DNA from: Gallaecimonas kandeliae
Lineage (GTDB): Bacteria; Pseudomonadota; Gammaproteobacteria; Enterobacterales; Gallaecimonadaceae
Reading direction: 5' to 3'
Assembly (NCBI RefSeq): GCF_030450055.1
Contig: NZ_CP118480.1
Location: 3,037,501 to 3,101,500, forward strand
DNA length: 64,000 nt
Both the position numbers and the translations under genes were made by a program. Positions 5,839 to 31,270 of this stretch are shown here, in pieces. The notes beneath the pieces were generated by a model. That model searched no databases. It saw only the letters and a list, made by a program, of their open reading frames with translations, and was not told where the DNA came from. How positions within the stretch are numbered: position 1 is the first letter of the stretch; each line of letters starts with the position of its first letter.

Positions 5839-7914
5839 TCAGGGGGCAACATAGCCACAACCAGAGGTCGGTGCAGACAAGGTGCTGGCCTGCATCAAGA
5901 CGCAACCATCAGATGGAACGGTGGTGGCCGTGATACCGCTGACAGTGACCGACACCCCGGTAACCGGGTAGTAGACGAAGGTGGTGCCACCGGAGCCTGA
6001 ATAGCTGAAACTCAAGGTACCGGACCAACCATCGGGGAAACCGGAGCAGTTGTAGGTCGGGGTACCAGCACCGCCAGGCGATGTCACGACGCAACTGATG
6101 CTGCTATCCACGGTGGCGTCGGACTTGGTTACCGTGATGGTCGTGCTCTCCACGGTATTGCTGCTGCAGGCTGCGCCGTTCTTGGTCAGGCAGTTCAGGT
6201 TTCCGGTGACTGCAGCACCGCTTCCGGTGACAGTGATGGCAAGGCTGTCCTCCAAATACTGGTTGCCATCGTCTTTATCCGTGGGCAGCGAGCCCGTAAC
6301 ACCGGTGTTACCCAGGCGGGCCCTGACCGCTACTGAGCCGCTGGCACCACTGGAGACAGTCAACAGGCCTCGGCTGTAGGTACCGTAATAATCGCTTGAG
6401 GGGTCCGGGTCCAGGGTCTTGATGGCCTCGCTGGAGACGCTCAGGCCAGTGCTGCCGGCTCCCACCTGCCAGTCGGCAAGGAGGGTCAGGTTGACGTCAT
6501 AAAAGGGCACCAGGGCCGGCCATTGGCTGTCGCCTCCGTTGATCAACGCCTGGACCCGGGCCAAGTCGTCCACATCCAGGTGATCCAGATAAATCCCCCT
6601 CGCCATCAGTTGGGTCGCACCTGTGTTATCGATCTTGAGTGCCTCGGAGGGGGAAGATATGTCCCGCAGGGCGCTCTTGTCGGCGGCAGTGGTGCCCATG
6701 ATGGCGTCCTTGACCTTGGCCAAAACGTAGGCTCGGTACGCCGCCTGGTTGGCACTTTCATCCAGCCAATCTTTTCGCATCAGGATGATGTCGATGAGGC
6801 GCCAGTCCTGCATGACCCTGTAATAACCGTCCACCCGCAGCAGGCGACAGGCCTCCAGATAGTCGGCTCCCGCCGATTGTGCTTTCGTGAAATTCACGGT
6901 ATCCAGGCCGCCGGCATCGGTGAAAGTGTTATAGCTGCTGTTGTCAAAAAGAAAGTGCTCATGGGGGGTGGTGGCCCGATCAGGATCGAAGAGCGGATAG
7001 CTGGTATCACTGCTGTCGAAGTGGTCATTGCAACACATGGTGCAGTAACTGGCGGCATTGTTGCTGGAAGGAGAGCCTGTCTGTTTATCCAGCAATGAAC
7101 CGTCTTTCACCACCACCTGATATTCGTTGACCTCTCCGCTGTCGTTAAAGTCCGGCTTGGACAGGAAAGGCGTATAGCCTTGGCCCGTGGTCGCATCCAG
7201 GCTGCATTGACAGTTGATGGTGGCAAAATCCTCCCGGATAAGGGTGGTCTTGTCCGGTTTGTAGGTGACGGTGTCAAACTTCACCAGGGTGCTGTTGCCC
7301 TGCTTGATGATGTCGGGAACAGGCTTGCTGCTTTCCCTCTTGATGCCGTCACCGCCCGTGTTGAGATCCAGGGCAATGACGTCAGGGGCCTGGCCAGGGG
7401 TGTAGCTGACCACTGGACCATCAGTGGATACTATAGGATCCAGGCCTTTCTTCTGATCCGCAGTGGAGTTTGAAGAAATGGAGCCGTTAAGGGTAACGGT
7501 GTCGGTGCCGTCGGGGCTGGTCCAACTGACGGTGATGGCGACAAGTTTCTGATCTGAATATGGCGCCCCCGCGGGGGCCGTGGTGGACCAGCTCCCCGTA
7601 CTGTCGTCGTAATAGAGATCGTTGACGTTCCAGTTACGGCTGTAGGCCTGGCCACTGACGGTAACGCTGTCGCTGCCGGTAACGATATCCACGTAGTTGG
7701 AAGTGCCCCCTATGGCATCATCGAAATCCCTGAAGGACTCCATCTTGGCCTTGGCCAGCTCCATTGCCACGTTGCGATAGAGGCTCTCATTGCTGGAGCG
7801 CAACAGGGTTTTCTGGAGCACCATCATGCCGGTGACCCCAATACCGATAACGGCGATGGCCACCATCACTTCGATCAGGCCAAAGCCCAGCCATCTTTTA
7901 GAAAAGGCTTTCAT
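5839..7914 (-). CDS. Giant PilV-class prepilin with cysteine-rich and Ig-like C-terminal regions
   Basis: 691-residue protein with a class III prepilin signal. The leader KRWLG is cut after Gly10, followed by FGLIEVMVAIAVIGIGVTGMM with Glu at mature position 5, as in PilV. Ordinary PilV proteins have about 150-200 residues, so about 500 extra residues form a large exported head. Its middle contains C235-x-C237, C291-T-M-C-C295 followed by N-D-H298, H-E-H at 318-320 and C356. The last 200 residues are Thr/Ser/Gly-rich beta repeats with cysteines that resemble Ig-like adhesin modules. The start at 7914 (rather than an in-frame ATG 33 bases upstream) places the leader correctly and gives a TAATG overlap with the preceding pilX-like gene. 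I infer a pilus-tip adhesin or sensor. No function is known to me. Confidence 0.85.
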   Translation of the reverse strand: MKAFSKRWLGFGLIEVMVAIAVIGIGVTGMMVLQKTLLRSSNESLYRNVAMELAKAKMESFRDFDDAIGGTSNYVDIVTGSDSVTVSGQAYSRNWNVNDLYYDDSTGSWSTTAPAGAPYSDQKLVAITVSWTSPDGTDTVTLNGSISSNSTADQKKGLDPIVSTDGPVVSYTPGQAPDVIALDLNTGGDGIKRESSKPVPDIIKQGNSTLVKFDTVTYKPDKTTLIREDFATINCQCSLDATTGQGYTPFLSKPDFNDSGEVNEYQVVVKDGSLLDKQTGSPSSNNAASYCTMCCNDHFDSSDTSYPLFDPDRATTPHEHFLFDNSSYNTFTDAGGLDTVNFTKAQSAGADYLEACRLLRVDGYYRVMQDWRLIDIILMRKDWLDESANQAAYRAYVLAKVKDAIMGTTAADKSALRDISSPSEALKIDNTGATQLMARGIYLDHLDVDDLARVQALINGGDSQWPALVPFYDVNLTLLADWQVGAGSTGLSVSSEAIKTLDPDPSSDYYGTYSRGLLTVSSGASGSVAVRARLGNTGVTGSLPTDKDDGNQYLEDSLAITVTGSGAAVTGNLNCLTKNGAACSSNTVESTTITVTKSDATVDSSISCVVTSPGGAGTPTYNCSGFPDGWSGTLSFSYSGSGGTTFVYYPVTGVSVTVSGITATTVPSDGCVLMQASTLSAPTSGCGYVAP

Positions 7915-25829: not shown

Positions 25830-27227
25830 ATGCGCAAGTTGCTCGCCTCCCTGCTCATCGCCTCGCTGCCGGCCGCGGCCGCCGTGACCGAGCAGGACAT
25901 CCAGACCGCCCAGAAACTCCGTGACCAAGCCCTGTCCAGCCCCCTGGCCTATGACCTGGTCAAATCCCTGGTGGTGGAAGTTGGCCCCCGCCTGGCCGGT
26001 TCTGAAAACAATAAAAAAGCAGAAGATTGGGCTGTTGCCAAGCTCAAGAGCCTGGGCTTTGACAAAGTCTACACCGAAGCCCTGACCATCCCCACCTGGA
26101 CGCGCGGCACCATCCACGCCGAAATCGAAGCCCCCTACCGCCAGCACCTGGCCATCACCGCCCTCGGCAATTCAGTGGGCACAGACGCCAAGGGCATAGA
26201 CGCCGAGGTGGCCTTCTTCGACAGCCTGGACGACCTCAAGGCCGCCGACCCTAAAGAGGTCAAAGGCAAGATCGTCTTCATCAACAAGCGCATGGCCCGC
26301 GCCCAAGACGGCTTCCAGTACGGCACCACTGTCGGCGCCCGCAGCCGCGGCGCCATAGAGGCGGCCAAGCTGGGTGCCAAGGCGGTGCTGATCCGCTCGG
26401 TCGGTACCGGCCTCAGCCGTTTTCCCCACACCGGCATGATGCATTACCAGGATGACGTCGAGAAGATCCCCGCCGCCGCCGTGGCGGTGCCGGATGCCAA
26501 CCTGCTCGAGGCCATGGTCAAGGAAGGCAAGCCGGTAAGGCTGCATCTGGAGATGACCGCCAAACCCGGCCCCGAAACCACTGTCCATAACGTCATCGCC
26601 GAAGTAACCGGCAGCGAGAAGCCGGACGAGATAGTGCTGATCGCCGGCCACCTGGACTCCTGGGACGAAGGCCAGGGCGCCATCGATGACGGCGCCGGCA
26701 TAGCCCTGGCCGCCGCCGCCGGCAAACTGATCAAGGATCTCCCCCGGCGGCCCAAGCGCACCATCCGCGTCGTCTTCTTCGCGGCCGAGGAAGTGGGCCT
26801 CTTCGGCGGCAAGGCCTACGTGGCTCAGCATAAGGACACCGATCTGGCCAAGCACGTGCTGGCCGGCGAGTCCGACTTCGGTGCCGGGCGCATCTACCGC
26901 ATCGACACCCGCTTCGGGCCCAAAGGCGATGACCTCAGCGCCGCCCTCAACAAGGTGCTGGGTCCCATCGGCGTCGATGTAGGCAGCAACCAGGCCGGCG
27001 GCGGTTCCGAAGTCAGCCTGATGCCCGCCTTTGGGGTGCCCGTGGTGAGCCTGCGCCAAGACGGCACTCACTACTTCGACTACCACCACACGGCAGACGA
27101 CACCCTCAACAAGATAGTGCCGGCGGAGCTTGCCCAGAATCTGGCCGCCTGGGTCTCCACCGTCTACCTGGCTGCCCAGAACGACAGCCCGCTGCGCCCC
27201 ATCCCCGAGGGGGATTTCGGCGAATAA
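25830..27227 (+). CDS. Secreted M28-family zinc peptidase (carboxypeptidase Q-like)
   Basis: 465 residues from ATG 25830, which has GGGA at a good distance; starts further upstream leave no room for a ribosome-binding site. The signal peptide is MRKLLASLLIASLPAAAA. A PA-domain-like part (residues about 120-240) is inserted before the catalytic domain. Zinc ligands are visible as AGHLDSWDEG (His, with catalytic Asp), GAIDDGAG (bridging Asp), FFAAEEVGLFGG (catalytic Glu followed by the metal Glu), ESDFGAGR (Asp) and DYHHTADDT (His). Probably a periplasmic aminopeptidase or dipeptidase. Monocistronic, with its own terminator. Confidence 0.9.
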   Translation: MRKLLASLLIASLPAAAAVTEQDIQTAQKLRDQALSSPLAYDLVKSLVVEVGPRLAGSENNKKAEDWAVAKLKSLGFDKVYTEALTIPTWTRGTIHAEIEAPYRQHLAITALGNSVGTDAKGIDAEVAFFDSLDDLKAADPKEVKGKIVFINKRMARAQDGFQYGTTVGARSRGAIEAAKLGAKAVLIRSVGTGLSRFPHTGMMHYQDDVEKIPAAAVAVPDANLLEAMVKEGKPVRLHLEMTAKPGPETTVHNVIAEVTGSEKPDEIVLIAGHLDSWDEGQGAIDDGAGIALAAAAGKLIKDLPRRPKRTIRVVFFAAEEVGLFGGKAYVAQHKDTDLAKHVLAGESDFGAGRIYRIDTRFGPKGDDLSAALNKVLGPIGVDVGSNQAGGGSEVSLMPAFGVPVVSLRQDGTHYFDYHHTADDTLNKIVPAELAQNLAAWVSTVYLAAQNDSPLRPIPEGDFGE

Positions 27228-27230
27228 GCA

Positions 27231-27257
27231 AAGGGCCCGCTTCGGCGGGTCTTTTTT
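27231..27257 (+). terminator. Intrinsic terminator of the M28 peptidase gene
   Basis: GGGCCCGC-TTCG-GCGGGTC hairpin followed by six T residues. It ends only a few bases before the PHO box of the next gene. Confidence 0.85.
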
Positions 27258-27259
27258 AT

Positions 27260-27316
27260 TTGGTCAAACAATGGTCACGGCACCGTCAAGGCACTGTCAT
27301 CCCTCCCACCTAGGCT
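27260..27316 (+). promoter_or_regulatory. PhoB-type promoter (PHO box) of the plcP-like gene
   Basis: Four 7-bp direct repeats at an 11-bp period: TTGGTCA (27260), ATGGTCA (27271), ACCGTCA (27282) and ACTGTCA (27293), each separated by 4 bp. The last repeat is closest to the PhoB consensus CTGTCAT. After 11 bp comes a -10 element TAGGCT (27311-27316), with no recognisable -35, as expected for PhoB-activated promoters. Confidence 0.8.
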
Positions 27317-27345
27317 GATCCCCGACTGAGTTCGGGAGAGACCAC

Positions 27346-28128
27346 ATGAGCCAGCCCCATCGCGCCGTCTTCCTTTCCGATCTGCACCTCGGCAGCAGGG
27401 ATTGCCAGGCCGACTACCTGGTCGCGCTGCTCCAGGAGCTGCAGGCCGAGACCATCTACCTGCTGGGGGACGTCATCGACCTCTGGGCCATGAGCCGGGG
27501 CAGCCACTGGCCCCACAGCCACTCCCAGGTGCTGTTCGAACTGGAACGCCATGCCCAGGCCGGCACCCGGGTCGTCTATATCCCCGGCAACCATGACGAA
27601 CCACTGCGCCGCTTCTGTGGCCGGGCCTTCGACCGCTTCGAGATGCGGCTGCGCGGCCGCCACCGCCTCAAGGACGGCCGAACCCTGCTGCTGACCCACG
27701 GCGACGAGTTCGACGCCGCCGTCTGCCTGGGCCGCTTCGAAGCCATGGTGGGCGACCTCGGCTACGACCTGCTGATGTGGCTCAACCGCAGCTGCCAGTG
27801 GACCCGTAAGCGCTTCGGCCTGCCCTACTGGTCCCTGGCCGGCTACATCAAGAGCCGTATCGGCAAGGCCCAGGCCGCCATCCACCGCTACCGCCAGGCC
27901 GCCCTCCAGGCAGCCCGCCTTGAGGGCTGCGACGGCATCGTCCTCGGCCACATCCATCAGCCGGCCTTGGAGGAAGTGGAAGGGCTGCTCTACCTCAACA
28001 CCGGCGATTTCGTCGACAGCTGCTCTTTTATCGCCGAGACCAGCGAAGGCCGGCTGGAGCTCATCCACTGGACAGAACAGCGCCAGCTGCTGGCCGCCCG
28101 TGCCGGCCTGGTGGCCAGGGCCGCCTGA
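27346..28128 (+). CDS. plcP: PlcP-like metallophosphoesterase (phospholipid remodelling phospholipase C family)
   Basis: 260-residue calcineurin-like phosphoesterase. Metal-binding motifs are D12-L-H14, G-D42-V-I-D45, G-N82-H83-D84, H118-G-D and G-H202-I-H204. The stretches YIPGNHDEP, LLTHGDEFD, YWSLAGYIK, LGHIHQPA and NTGDFVDSC are those of the PlcP family, which rhizobia and marine bacteria use under phosphate starvation to cleave phosphatidylglycerol and phosphatidylethanolamine to diacylglycerol. Automatic pipelines usually call it UDP-2,3-diacylglucosamine diphosphatase because of its LpxH-like fold. Position before olsF and behind a PHO box supports PlcP. No signal peptide, so it acts at the cytoplasmic face of the membrane. 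Confidence 0.75.
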   Translation: MSQPHRAVFLSDLHLGSRDCQADYLVALLQELQAETIYLLGDVIDLWAMSRGSHWPHSHSQVLFELERHAQAGTRVVYIPGNHDEPLRRFCGRAFDRFEMRLRGRHRLKDGRTLLLTHGDEFDAAVCLGRFEAMVGDLGYDLLMWLNRSCQWTRKRFGLPYWSLAGYIKSRIGKAQAAIHRYRQAALQAARLEGCDGIVLGHIHQPALEEVEGLLYLNTGDFVDSCSFIAETSEGRLELIHWTEQRQLLAARAGLVARAA

Positions 28129-28185
28129 ACGGTCACAAAAGCGTCACCACCCTGTTAGGGAAACGCCACATTGGCTCTCTAGGCT
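28129..28185 (+). promoter_or_regulatory. PhoB-type promoter (PHO box) of olsF
   Basis: Directly after the plcP stop codon there are four half-sites at an 11-bp period: ACGGTCA (28129), AGCGTCA (28140), CCTGTTA (28151) and AACGCCA (28162). An 11-bp gap then leads to the -10 TAGGCT (28180-28185). Layout, spacing and -10 hexamer are the same as in the promoter before plcP. Confidence 0.75.
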
Positions 28186-28213
28186 GTCGGCAGATACGCC
28201 AGAGAGAAAGCCC

Positions 28214-29920
28214 ATGTTCAGCGTCGAAAACGTACTGGAGCGCTATTTCCCCCAGGCCCCCTACAAGAAGGTGCTGACCCCGGTATTGCGCCAACTCCTG
28301 CACGAGAAAGACTTTCAGGAATTCGACAAGGCCTACCCCAACGTCAAGGGCTGGGACTTCGTGGAAGGGGTGCTGGACTACTTCGACTTCGGCTACAGGG
28401 TCGCCGACCGCGAGAAGGAGCGCATTCCCGCTAGCGGCCGGGTGGTGATCATCGCCAACCACCCCATAGGCACCTTGGACGGCCTGGCCCTCCTCAAACT
28501 CATCGGCGAGGTACGCCGCGACGTCAAGGTCGTCGCCAATGCCCTGCTGAGCGAAATAGAGCCCCTGCGCAACCTGCTCTGCCCGGTCAACAACATGGTG
28601 GGCAGCACCCAGAAGGGCCAATACCAGGCCATACGGGAGCACTTGGGCCAGAACGGTGCCGTCATTATCTTCCCCTCCGGCGAGGTCTCCCGGTTGCGCC
28701 CCCAAGGGGTGCGCGACACCCGCTGGCGCTCCGGCTTCCTGCGCCTGGCCCGCCAGACCCAGTCGCCGATACTGCCGATCCGGGTCGAGGCGCGGAACTC
28801 CGCCCTCTTCTACTCCACCTCCATGCTGTACAAGCCCCTGGCCACCACCTTGCTGGTGCAGGAGATGTTCAAGCAGAAGCACAAGCGGCTGCAGATGCAG
28901 GTGGGGGAACTGATCCCCCACAGCCAGCTCGACGGCATCCATGACCTGCCCCTGCGCACCCAGGTCAAACTGTTCAAGAAACACCTCTACCGCCTGGGCA
29001 CCCCCAAGAAGCTGCTGTTCAAGACAGAGAGCGCCATAGCCCAGCGCGAAGACCGCCAGGCACTGCTGGCCGTGCTGCAAGGCTGCCAACTGCTGGGCCA
29101 GACCCCGGACGGCATGCAGATCCACCTCTACCGCTACCAGGACGACTGCCCCCTGATGCGCGAGATCGGCCGGCTGCGGGAAGTCGCCTTCAGGGCCGTC
29201 GGCGAAGGCACAGGCCGGCGCCGCGACACCGACCGCTTCGACCCCCAGTACCTGCATCTGGTGCTCTGGGATCCCAAACGCCTGGAGATCGCCGGGGCCT
29301 ACCGCTTCGCCGACGCCGCCCAACTCGGCCGCGAAGGCCTCTACAGCCAGACCCTCTTCGACTATGGCCCCGAGATGGACACCATCCTGGAGCAAGGCCT
29401 GGAGCTGGGCCGCAGCTTCGTGCAGCCGGCCTACTGGGGCAAGCGGGCCCTGGACTACCTCTGGATGGGCATAGGCGCCTTCCTGGCGGACAACCCCAGG
29501 TACCGTTACCTGTTCGGGCCCGTGTCCCTGTCCGCCAGCCTGCCGCCGGCGGCCCAGGATCTGATGGTCTACTTCTACCGCCTCTACTTCGGCCAGGAGA
29601 GCCTGGGCACCCGCCACCACAGGCCCTATCAGCTGGCCGGCGAGACCCTGCTCGACCTCACCGCCACCTTCAAGGGCGACGACTACAAGCACGACTTCGT
29701 GCTGCTCAAGGACAAGCTGGCCGCCATGGGCGTGGCCGTGCCCACCCTCTACAAGCAGTACGCCGAGCTCTGTGAACCGGGCGGCGTGCGCTTCCTGGAT
29801 TTCGGCACAGACCCTGACTTTGCCAACTGCGTGGACGGCCTGGTACTGGTGGACGTGCAGGCCCTCAAGCCCCAGAAACGCAGCCGCTATATCGACGCCC
29901 ATAAAGCCGGCGAGCAATAA
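28214..29920 (+). CDS. olsF: Bifunctional acyltransferase OlsF, ornithine lipid synthesis
   Basis: 568 residues, two fused enzymes. Residues 1-270 are an O-acyltransferase (OlsA/PlsC type) with the active-site block ANHPIGTLDG (H83, D89), IIFPSGEVSR and PILPIRVEARNS. Residues 290-568 are an OlsB-like N-acyltransferase of the GNAT-hemolysin type (REVAFRAVGEGTGRRRDTDRFD, then HLVLWD and GAYRFADA). This order (OlsA half first, OlsB half second) is that of OlsF from Serratia and other gammaproteobacteria, which makes ornithine lipids by acylating ornithine twice. ATG 28214 has AGAGAAAG upstream. Its own PHO box suggests induction by phosphate limitation. The 3' end is partly duplicated just downstream. 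Confidence 0.87.
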   Translation: MFSVENVLERYFPQAPYKKVLTPVLRQLLHEKDFQEFDKAYPNVKGWDFVEGVLDYFDFGYRVADREKERIPASGRVVIIANHPIGTLDGLALLKLIGEVRRDVKVVANALLSEIEPLRNLLCPVNNMVGSTQKGQYQAIREHLGQNGAVIIFPSGEVSRLRPQGVRDTRWRSGFLRLARQTQSPILPIRVEARNSALFYSTSMLYKPLATTLLVQEMFKQKHKRLQMQVGELIPHSQLDGIHDLPLRTQVKLFKKHLYRLGTPKKLLFKTESAIAQREDRQALLAVLQGCQLLGQTPDGMQIHLYRYQDDCPLMREIGRLREVAFRAVGEGTGRRRDTDRFDPQYLHLVLWDPKRLEIAGAYRFADAAQLGREGLYSQTLFDYGPEMDTILEQGLELGRSFVQPAYWGKRALDYLWMGIGAFLADNPRYRYLFGPVSLSASLPPAAQDLMVYFYRLYFGQESLGTRHHRPYQLAGETLLDLTATFKGDDYKHDFVLLKDKLAAMGVAVPTLYKQYAELCEPGGVRFLDFGTDPDFANCVDGLVLVDVQALKPQKRSRYIDAHKAGEQ

Positions 29921-29923
29921 CAA

Positions 29924-29939
29924 AGCCCCGAGCGGGGCT
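29924..29939 (+). terminator. Short hairpin after olsF
   Basis: AGCCCC-GAGC-GGGGCT stem directly after the stop codon. The following bases (CTCATCAGG) are poor in T, so termination here may be weak. Confidence 0.4.
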
Positions 29940-29953
29940 CTCATCAGGTGCCC

Positions 29954-30073
29954 GGCACAGACCCTGCCGACATGGCCAACTGCGTGGACGGCCTGGTACC
30001 GGTGGATGTGCAGGCCCTCAAGCCCCAGAAGCGCGGCCGCTATATCGACGCCCACAAAGCCGGCGAGCAATAA
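29954..30073 (+). pseudogene. Remnant copy of the olsF C-terminus
   Basis: Encodes, in the same register as olsF, GTDPADMANCVDGLVPVD and then VQALKPQKRGRYIDAHKAGEQ followed by TAA. The real olsF ending is GTDPDFANCVDGLVLVD and VQALKPQKRSRYIDAHKAGEQ. No start codon with a ribosome-binding site and no acyltransferase core is attached (a GTG at 29948 opens about 41 codons only), so this is a gene fragment left by tandem duplication and deletion or by a recombination event. Confidence 0.85.
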
Positions 30074-30103
30074 CAAAGCCCCTTTCGGAGCTATAGAAAC
30101 GAC

Positions 30104-30125
30104 AAGGCCCCTTTCGGGGCCTTTT
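30104..30125. terminator. Terminator between the olsF remnant and dapE
   Basis: AAGGCCCC-TTTC-GGGGCCTT followed by TTT on the plus strand, close to the dapE stop codon on the minus strand. It probably serves the olsF side; a damaged third hairpin of similar sequence lies at about 30073-30093. Confidence 0.75.
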
Positions 30126-30127
30126 TC

Positions 30128-31270
30128 TCAGAGGCTTTCCAGCAACGCCTGGTAGATGTCGATAAGGCGCAGGTACTCGCCCTTCTCCACCCGCTCGTTG
30201 GCCTGGTGGATGCTGGCATTGGGCAGGCCCAGCTCTATCACCTCGCAGCCAAGGGCGCTGAAGAAGCGGCCGTCGGAGGCGCCGCCGGCGGTGGACAGCA
30301 CCGGGAACTGGCCCAGGCCCTTGAACACGGCCCGCTCCACCCGGGTCAGGAAGTTGGGCTGCGCCTCGCCGAACAGGCTGAAATAGGGCTCGCAGGGCCT
30401 GTCCCAATCCAGCTGGAAGTCGAGATCACCTGGCACCAAGGCGCGGATCCGCTGATCGATGGCGTCCTTGCTGGTCTTGTGGGAATAGCGCAGGTTGAAC
30501 CTCAAGGTGGCGCTGGAGGGGGTGACGTTGTCCAGCCAGTCACCGTGTTCCAGGCCTGTGACGTGCAGCACAGTGCCGGGGAAGTCCGGCGCCCCCGAGT
30601 CCCACTCCAGGGCCGCCAGCTGCTGGCCCAGCGCCAGGGCCCGGTGCAGCAGGTTGGCGGTAGGCGGCAGGTAGGCAACGTGCCCGGCCCGGCCGGACAG
30701 GCGCAAAGTGCCGGAAACGGCGCCGCGACGGCCGACACGCAAAGTGTCACCGCTATGGCTGCGGGCCGTTGGCTCCCCCACCAACACCCAGGGCGGCAAC
30801 AACCCCTGGGTCTTGAGGTGCTGGGCCATGACGCGGGAGCCGAATTCCGCCTCCCCTTCCTCGTCCGAGGTCAGCAGCAGCATCAGGCCGGGCAGCTCGT
30901 GGCCGGTAGCCAGGGCCCTTTCCACGGCCACCAAAAAGGCGGCAATGCCGCCTTTCATATCTGCAATGCCCCGGCCGTAGAGGTAGCCACCCAGCTCGCT
31001 GAGCTGGAAAGGGGGGACCTGCCAGTGCTGGCCGGCTGGCACAACGTCGGTGTGGCCCGCGAAGGCCAGGCTGGGCACGCCAGGGCGGCGGGCGATGAGG
31101 TTGTCCACCCCCTGGCAGGGCAGCCTTTCCACGATGAAGCCCAGCTCTTCCAGCCGCTCTGCCAGATAGGGCTGGCAACCGGCATCCAAAGGCGTGACCG
31201 AAGCCTTGCCCAGCAGGGCCTCGAGGTGGACCAGTTCAGGGGCGGCCTGGGGGGCCTTTTGCAGCTTCAT
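30128..31270 (-). CDS. dapE: Succinyl-diaminopimelate desuccinylase DapE
   Basis: Zinc enzyme of lysine and meso-diaminopimelate synthesis. 380 residues, M20 fold. Metal and catalytic motifs: FAGHTDVVPAG (His and Asp), GRGIADMKGG (bridging Asp), TSDEEGEAEFG (catalytic and metal Glu), GEPT, and near the C-terminus STAGGASDGRFF and the last zinc His in NASIHQANE. The family usually has GTSDGRF, so the alanine in GASDGRF is a small change. Stands between olsF and nhaR with no obvious operon partner. Confidence 0.93.
   Translation of the reverse strand: MKLQKAPQAAPELVHLEALLGKASVTPLDAGCQPYLAERLEELGFIVERLPCQGVDNLIARRPGVPSLAFAGHTDVVPAGQHWQVPPFQLSELGGYLYGRGIADMKGGIAAFLVAVERALATGHELPGLMLLLTSDEEGEAEFGSRVMAQHLKTQGLLPPWVLVGEPTARSHSGDTLRVGRRGAVSGTLRLSGRAGHVAYLPPTANLLHRALALGQQLAALEWDSGAPDFPGTVLHVTGLEHGDWLDNVTPSSATLRFNLRYSHKTSKDAIDQRIRALVPGDLDFQLDWDRPCEPYFSLFGEAQPNFLTRVERAVFKGLGQFPVLSTAGGASDGRFFSALGCEVIELGLPNASIHQANERVEKGEYLRLIDIYQALLESL

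What the first reader, a model, noticed from the sequence alone, without database searches (positions are those of the whole stretch)
27260..29920. A phosphate-starvation lipid-remodelling module: plcP-like and olsF-like genes with twin PHO-box promoters
Seen in the sequence: two promoters 870 bp apart have the same layout. Each has four 7-bp repeats containing GTCA (or close variants) at an exact 11-bp period, then 11 bp, then TAGGCT as -10. They stand before a PlcP-family metallophosphoesterase and a fused OlsA-OlsB acyltransferase (OlsF). Known: PhoB binds direct repeats of CTGTCAT with 11-bp period; PlcP releases diacylglycerol from phospholipids under Pi limitation; OlsF makes ornithine lipids. 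Inference: the pair lets the cell recycle phospholipid phosphate and replace the lost lipids with phosphate-free ones. Two tandem PhoB promoters in adjacent genes, instead of one operon promoter, would allow separate tuning of degradation and replacement.
Basis: partly seen in the sequence, partly recalled or inferred. Interest (0 to 1): 0.85.

Follow-up and report, generated by a model that had tools for sequence, protein, structure and literature searches.

The report
Phosphate-starvation membrane lipid swap genes
Two neighbouring genes, one that probably strips phosphate-bearing heads from membrane lipids and one that makes a phosphate-free replacement lipid, each carry their own phosphate-starvation switch, and the same switch sits before a third gene pair that may use up the leftover lipid.

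Summary
Window 27263-27299 holds four perfect GTCA units at 11-bp period, 11 nt, then TAGGCT; 28132-28168 holds GTCA/GTCA/GTTA/GCCA in the same layout. In the 3.84-Mb genome only four sites have at most 2 mismatches to the four-unit pattern: plcP, a phoX-like gene, pstS and olsF. With a -10 added, 5 sites fit with at most 3 mismatches; the reversed control has 0.
The genes are a PlcP-type metallophosphoesterase (true LpxH lies elsewhere) and a full-length OlsF. They are adjacent in 18 of 38 plcP-bearing genomes (own included) and in 14 of 80 named plcP loci.
The 'separate tuning' idea is only partly supported: unpaired plcP and olsF mostly carry the box too, 8 of 18 pairs lack the second box, and no terminator was found between the genes.
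New: OlsF does not consume PlcP's diacylglycerol. Another of the five sites stands before PAP2 + a TIGR00661 glycosyltransferase, which is in 21 of 22 plcP-bearing genomes of 79 (own included), sometimes near plcP, and in 0 of 299 sampled genomes together with Agt. I propose it as the diacylglycerol sink. All function is inferred; nothing was measured.

The parts
27230..27255 (+). Terminator-like hairpin after the upstream M28 peptidase gene; the Pho promoter starts 8 bp after it
   Evidence: peptidase by Pfam PF04389
27263..27299 (+). PHO box of plcP: four perfect GTCA units at 11-bp period
   Evidence: only 0-mismatch site in the genome; the best box before plcP scores 13/16 or more in 18 of 18 pairs
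27311..27316 (+). Likely -10 element TAGGCT, 11 nt after the last GTCA
   Evidence: TANNNT at exactly +11 in 44 of 53 boxes of 12/16 or more; 0 consensus sigma-70 promoters in 27100-30200
27346..28128 (+). plcP: PlcP-type metallophosphoesterase, 260 aa
   Evidence: homologs in 102 of 299 phylum genomes; Agt-like gene within 600 nt downstream in 41 of 80 named loci; two LpxH rows split off 100/100; model pLDDT 88.1
28132..28168 (+). PHO box of olsF: GTCA, GTCA, GTTA, GCCA at 11-bp period
28180..28185 (+). Likely -10 element TAGGCT of olsF, 11 nt after the box
28214..29920 (+). olsF: bifunctional ornithine lipid synthase, 568 aa, O-acyltransferase half then GNAT N-acyltransferase half
   Evidence: NF052615 842.7 bits, cut-off 620; PF19576/PF01553 and PF13444

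Best explanation
This is a PhoB-controlled membrane-lipid remodelling locus. When phosphate runs out, phosphorylated PhoB binds the four 11-bp-spaced units, which stand where a -35 element would be, and recruits RNA polymerase to the -10 located 11 nt further on (inferred from the layout). plcP is switched on; PlcP cleaves phospholipids to diacylglycerol and phosphorylated head groups (inferred from family). olsF is switched on from its own box, and probably also by read-through from plcP, and OlsF builds phosphate-free ornithine lipid from ornithine and two acyl groups (inferred from family). The diacylglycerol left by PlcP is not used by OlsF; in this genome it is most likely taken by a third Pho-box unit, PAP2 + TIGR00661 glycosyltransferase at G000:C1 about 3455.6-3457.3 kb, which would make a glycolipid. 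My estimates: core anatomy and Pho control 0.9, diacylglycerol step about 0.45. The confidence below is for the core.
For: Boxes, spacing and genome-wide specificity. PhoB 373 bits and PhoR 555 bits, with a PHO box just before pstS downstream of phoR. OlsF over cut-off. PlcP not LpxH; homologs within 600 nt upstream of an Agt-like gene in 41 and of olsF in 14 of 80 named loci. Of 38 genomes (own included, of 148) with plcP over 100 bits, 36 have OlsF over cut-off and 18 have the two side by side. -10 at exactly +11 in 44 of 53 boxes of 12/16 or more. PAP2-GT: box of 12/16 or more before it in 26 of 30 GT loci, own included; GT over cut-off in 21 of 22 plcP-bearing genomes of 79 against 12 of 57 others; PAP2-GT near plcP in L175, L181, L198, L248, L249. 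PlcP releasing diacylglycerol from PE and PG in other bacteria: PMC8231724, passages.
Against: No expression, binding or lipid data. 8 of 18 pairs have no second box at 12/16; of 14 named pairs 6 have both, 4 only plcP's, 3 only olsF's and 1 neither, so the plcP box too is below the threshold in 4 of 14. 22 of 80 named plcP loci have none of the tested partners nearby by the script's rule. In the Tara ocean data olsF abundance was not influenced by the relative phosphate measure N* (PMC6298996, passages), so olsF need not be a phosphate gene everywhere; PMC9938194 (passages) calls aminolipid formation independent of PlcP remodelling, in an organism that lacks PlcP according to PMC6298996. The GT also occurs without plcP (12 of 57; 10 of 21 GT-bearing genomes of the phylum sample, where GT against plcP gives p = 0.09), and 9 of 102 plcP genomes have neither Agt nor GT. 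None of the counts is corrected for kinship. PAP2 is weakly nearest to undecaprenyl-diphosphatase models (48 bits, cut-off 250). Ornithine lipid reached about 90% of lipids in low-phosphate V. cholerae (PMC13157583, passages), so a glycolipid need not matter wherever the operon occurs.
Confidence: 0.85

Rival explanations
1. The metallophosphoesterase is a second LpxH or another phosphodiesterase, and its place before olsF is accidental.
For: Distant homology to LpxH (22% identity in the best PDB fold match; 30.9 bits); no verified PlcP sequence was in hand to group it with.
Against: Far below LpxH cut-offs; a true LpxH at 323 bits and a CpdA at 244 bits lie elsewhere; two LpxH rows split off 100/100; GNHDE in place of GNRD in the aligned LpxH; Agt-like or olsF gene within 600 nt downstream in 55 of 80 named loci.
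Confidence: 0.03
2. plcP and olsF form an ordinary two-gene Pho operon; the second box is a remnant of a separate olsF promoter with little effect.
For: No + strand terminator between the genes; 85-bp gap; 6 of 6 pairs of one family and 3 of 3 named Shewanella pairs lack a second box at 12/16; unpaired olsF genes carry the box in 12 of 16 loci examined.
Against: The olsF box is kept in 5 of 5 genomes of the window's genus (12 to 14 of 16), and here has its -10 at +11.
Confidence: 0.35
3. The PAP2 + TIGR00661 glycosyltransferase operon is Pho-controlled but acts on LPS or an undecaprenyl-linked glycan, not on PlcP's diacylglycerol; diacylglycerol is recycled by a kinase or degraded.
For: PAP2 weakly nearest to undecaprenyl-diphosphatase models; the GT is present in plcP-less genomes; the GT model matches varied GT-B enzymes.
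Against: GT over cut-off in 21 of 22 plcP-bearing genomes of 79; 0 of 299 phylum-sample genomes have both GT and Agt; operon-like linkage in L198 (16 bp from GT to plcP) and nearness in L181.
Confidence: 0.4

Closest known systems
plcP-agt lipid remodelling clusters (PMC4796936, section 13 read, other passages; PMC9239053 and PMC8231724, passages)
   Same: PlcP-type enzyme, Pho box, neighbouring gene for a phosphate-free lipid
   Different: The partner here is OlsF, which does not consume diacylglycerol; Agt is not found in this genome (one partial match, 30.7 bits). PMC4796936's section on plcP gene context does not name ornithine lipid genes and its main text holds olsF and olsB 0 times; its supplement was not seen
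PhoB-dependent OlsF (VC0489) of Vibrio cholerae (PMC12186959, passages; Barbosa 2018, seen only as cited there)
   Same: OlsF made at low phosphate under PhoB
   Different: No plcP is mentioned there (PlcP 0 times in the main text); here olsF is paired with plcP and each has a box
E. coli-type Pho promoters (CTGTCATNNNNCTGTCAT, quoted in PMC11828411, passages)
   Same: 11-bp repeat period
   Different: Four units here, and TANNNT at +11 after the last GTCA in 44 of 53 boxes
TIGR00661 MJ1255/VC2487 glycosyltransferase family
   Same: Own-genome GT 264 bits, cut-off 195.9
   Different: No lipid role found: VC2487 in 1 paper, as a ChiS binding site; MJ1255 + glycosyltransferase and PAP2 + glycosyltransferase + Pho regulon + diacylglycerol in 0 papers

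Membership tests
PlcP | Calcineurin-like metallophosphoesterase with D-x-H, GD, GNHD, HGD and GHIH motifs | tested here: met
   Pfam PF00149/PF12850; these residues invariant in 19 and in 36 homologs aligned
PlcP | Separate from LpxH by sequence and phylogeny | tested here: met
PlcP | Homologs adjacent to genes for phosphate-free lipids (agt) | tested here: met
   41 of 80 named loci with an Agt-like match within 600 nt downstream, a few of them weak or cut; 82 of 102 plcP genomes have Agt, 6 of the 82 only weakly
PlcP | Grouping with a biochemically verified PlcP sequence | not tested
   No verified PlcP sequence was in hand; the agt linkage stands in for it
PlcP | Hydrolyses phospholipids to diacylglycerol | not testable with these tools
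   needs enzyme assay
OlsF | Full-length match to the equivalog model over cut-off | tested here: met
   NF052615 842.7 bits, cut-off 620, residues 1-560
OlsF | Fused O-acyltransferase and N-acyltransferase (GNAT) halves | tested here: met
   PF19576 24-261, PF13444 321-417; GlsA model 19-244, GlsB model 282-561. PMC9938194 states the opposite order of halves; the models here put the O-acyltransferase half first
OlsF | Makes ornithine lipid | not testable with these tools
   needs lipid analysis
PhoB-dependent promoter | GTCA units at 11-bp period in the place of -35 with a spaced -10 | tested here: met
PhoB-dependent promoter | PhoB and PhoR present in the genome | tested here: met
   373 and 555 bits, cut-offs 296.2 and 390
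PhoB-dependent promoter | PhoB binding and induction at low phosphate | not testable with these tools
   needs footprint or expression data
LpxH | Match to LpxH models over cut-off | tested here: not met
   40.9 of 134 and 32.5 of 190.35 bits
Diacylglycerol glycosyltransferase (for the off-window TIGR00661 GT) | GT-B fold | tested here: inconclusive
   Model of the L198 homolog from 3 sequences, mean pLDDT 66.8; Foldseek matches GT-B enzymes such as UGT-type ones and MurG
Diacylglycerol glycosyltransferase (for the off-window TIGR00661 GT) | Transfers sugar to diacylglycerol | not testable with these tools
   needs assay

The most novel reading that the evidence does not exclude
The TIGR00661 (MJ1255/VC2487) glycosyltransferase, with its PAP2 phosphatase, is a second, unrecognised class of Pho-regulated diacylglycerol glycosyltransferase that takes Agt's place in part of the Gammaproteobacteria. 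Together with plcP and olsF it forms a three-part regulon: PlcP and PAP2 supply diacylglycerol, the GT turns it into glycolipid, and OlsF adds ornithine lipid.
Probability: 0.45. Interest if true: 0.75.

Novelty: new variant of a known kind. Interest (0 to 1): 0.5.

Why it matters
PlcP and OlsF are known separately. Four held papers name both; in the passages seen of all four (one search showed 12 of 19 places for a wider set of words, one search showed 12 of 16) no plcP-olsF gene pair is described. The pair exposes a gap: OlsF does not use the diacylglycerol that PlcP makes. The third Pho-box unit offers a specific, testable answer, and a function for a glycosyltransferase family for which I found none. 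If right, low-phosphate membranes of common marine bacteria (relatives of Alteromonas, Rheinheimera and the like) may hold glycolipids made by an enzyme that surveys based on agt would miss.

Tried and rejected
LpxH reading: rejected. Using loose box hits alone as evidence: rejected, 21 hits against 17 for the reversed control; the -10 was added instead. 'Two promoters are a special design of this pair': weakened by unpaired genes with the box and by pairs without the second box. Agt as the diacylglycerol consumer here: only a partial 30.7-bit match. Solved structure of an OlsF or TIGR00661 relative: none by sequence. Fold search of PlcP gave LpxH first but with TM 0.56; it supports the superfamily, not the substrate. 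The GT fold (3 sequences, pLDDT 66.8) supports only GT-B. Sigma-70 promoter scan: nothing, as expected if the box replaces -35. Literature searches on VC2487, MJ1255 and PAP2 + glycosyltransferase gave no lipid role. tRNA scan of the window: none.

Rows dropped and partial inputs: one search examined 67 upstream regions: 18 + 18 of pairs, 16 of the 51 unpaired OlsF genomes over cut-off and 15 of the 20 unpaired plcP genomes (those for which a locus was returned). 53 of the 67 reach 12/16; the 14 that do not are 8 olsF in pairs, 4 unpaired olsF and 2 unpaired plcP. The -10 count was run on 61 of the 67 (the six olsF regions of one family, all below 12/16, were not entered) and used the 53. plcP presence in relatives was taken as over 100 bits; the next row lies at 38.3 bits. 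Of the 82 plcP genomes with Agt (E up to 1e-40), 6 have only weak partial matches. GT in relatives was searched in 79 of the 148 genomes.
Full report
What was claimed and what is there. Both are present as described. The plcP box, 27263-27299, has four perfect GTCA units; the olsF box, 28132-28168, has GTCA, GTCA, GTTA, GCCA. In both, 11 nt lie between the last unit and TAGGCT, and 46 and 45 nt between the last unit and the ATG.

More than chance. In the window the four-unit pattern with at most 3 mismatches occurs 5 times (three overlapping at plcP, one elsewhere at 7623) against 0.30 expected. In the whole genome such loose hits are about as common as for the reversed control (21 against 17), but the hits with at most 2 mismatches are four: plcP, a PhoX-type phosphatase (68 bits to PF05787), pstS just downstream of phoBR, and olsF. 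Adding TANNNT at +11 leaves five sites with at most 3 mismatches against none for the control: plcP, phoX-like, olsF, a PAP2-glycosyltransferase operon, and one site before a GGDEF-type gene. pstS's box does not have that -10 spacing (read by eye) and is not in this last list.

The proteins. OlsF matches its equivalog model from residue 1 to 560 of 568 (842.7 bits, cut-off 620), with the O-acyltransferase half first and the GNAT N-acyltransferase half second; PMC9938194 gives the opposite order in passing. The metallophosphoesterase falls far below the LpxH cut-offs, while the genome has an LpxH at 323 bits and a CpdA at 244 bits elsewhere. In a 20-row tree the two LpxH sequences split off with 100/100 support; the CpdA row has a very long branch and its place is unsure, and 8 of 17 inner branches are poorly supported. 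LpxH structures are its nearest solved relatives by sequence (30.9 bits) and fold (TM 0.56), as expected of one superfamily. Homologs occur in 102 of 299 genomes sampled across the phylum. In 41 of 80 named loci they stand within 600 nt upstream of an Agt-like GT4 gene, the arrangement with experimental support in the literature (PMC4796936 section 13 read; PMC9239053 and PMC8231724 passages); 14 stand before olsF, 3 near PAP2-GT661, and 22 near none of these by the script's rule. No verified PlcP sequence was in hand, so the name rests on this linkage.

Conservation of the pair. Of 148 genomes (own included), 38 have a plcP homolog over 100 bits and 69 have OlsF over cut-off; 36 of the 38 have both, and in 18 the two are adjacent in the order plcP-olsF. 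The 14 named plcP-olsF loci are Rheinheimera (2), Alteromonas (3), Shewanella (3), Paraglaciecola, Glaciecola, Aestuariibacter, an uncultured Thalassotalea and two Alteromonadaceae. No call names the window's organism; Gallaecimonas is my guess from recall only.

Promoter conservation. In the 18 pairs plcP always has a box of 13/16 or more. olsF has its own box of 12/16 or more in 10 of 18: 5 of 5 of the window's genus, 3 of 4 and 2 of 3 in two other families, 0 of 6 in a fourth. In the 14 named pairs both genes reach 12/16 in 6, only plcP in 4, only olsF in 3, neither in 1; the three Shewanella pairs have 9, 9 and 11 before olsF. Unpaired plcP has a box in 13 of 15 loci examined and unpaired olsF in 12 of 16. 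So each gene mostly carries a Pho promoter wherever it stands. Over the 53 boxes of 12/16 or more, TANNNT sits at exactly +11 in 44, and at any other offset from 0 to 19 in at most 4; many of these genomes are close kin, so the 53 are not independent. This spacing, with no consensus sigma-70 promoter found in the region, is what a PhoB-activated promoter should look like.

Read-through. A terminator-like hairpin ends just before the plcP box (27230-27255); none was found on the + strand between plcP and olsF. olsF may therefore be served by two promoters. This is the main reason why 'separate tuning' is only partly supported.

The missing step. By established biochemistry PlcP leaves diacylglycerol, and OlsF acylates ornithine and does not use it. 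In the literature seen, the consumer is often Agt. Agt was not found here (one partial 30.7-bit match). Another of the five Pho promoters stands before a PAP2 phosphatase and a TIGR00661 glycosyltransferase (264 bits, cut-off 195.9). In 26 of 30 GT loci (own included) the best box within 1500 bp upstream scores 12/16 or more and lies just before PAP2, where 0-3 of 60 shuffles reach the score; L148, L150, L151 and L157 fail. Of the 79 genomes searched for the GT (own included), 22 have plcP; 21 of these have the GT over cut-off (the other, G058, has a broken plcP next to a partial GT), against 12 of 57 without plcP. In the phylum sample, of 102 plcP genomes 82 have Agt, 11 have the GT, none has both and 9 have neither; over all 299 genomes GT against plcP is not significant (p = 0.09), because the GT also occurs in 10 plcP-less genomes. 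None of these tests corrects for kinship.

Linkage. LSUCC0057 (L198) has PAP2-GT-plcP in one direction with 16 bp between GT and plcP; the box before PAP2 is only 12/16, a score that also turns up three times elsewhere in that locus. Psychrosphaera haliotis (L181) has olsF, plcP, a ppx-like gene (by eye), PAP2 and GT in one direction. Rheinheimera sp. SA_1 (L175) and G061 (L249) have plcP and PAP2-GT back to back, and G243 (L248) has PAP2-GT about 1.4 kb downstream of plcP on the same strand. A low-confidence model of the L198 GT matches GT-B enzymes, among them MurG and a sterol glucosyltransferase.

Judgement. The given finding is real and mostly correctly read: a Pho-controlled PlcP/OlsF remodelling locus. 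Its parts are known; a plcP-olsF gene pair was not found described in what I saw of the held papers (searches; passages). The more interesting lead is outside the window: PAP2 + TIGR00661 GT in Agt's place. It is an inference from co-occurrence, linkage and shared promoter, with no biochemical evidence.

Noticed in passing
window 29816-29939 and 29969-30092: The last part of olsF with the bases after its stop is duplicated in tandem, 91% identical, just downstream. No such second tail hit is among the matches listed for the other genomes, whose list was cut.
   Followed up: partly
G000:C1 about 3455.6-3457.3 kb (L102:5650-7324): PAP2 phosphatase + TIGR00661 glycosyltransferase operon with a Pho-type promoter, conserved in 26 of 30 GT loci.
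   Followed up: yes
G000:C1:1778292-1778345 (L254:1501-1554): A Pho-like promoter with 3 mismatches stands before a GGDEF-type protein gene; only two of its four units are perfect, so it may be chance.
   Followed up: no
L121 (G382): A plcP homolog stands upstream of a gene whose product looks like PstS, another Pho-linked neighbourhood (read by eye).
   Followed up: no
L130-L132 (family f21): Three genomes with the PAP2-GT operon and a box of 12-13/16 before it but without a plcP match over 100 bits: the operon may also work without PlcP.
   Followed up: partly
L250 (G058:C32): A plcP homolog with one internal stop lies directly before a GT that runs into the contig end; decaying or badly assembled.
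   Followed up: no
L230 (Halieaceae UBA6060): The reverse order olsF-plcP, about 55 bp apart, possibly an independent joining of the two genes.
   Followed up: no
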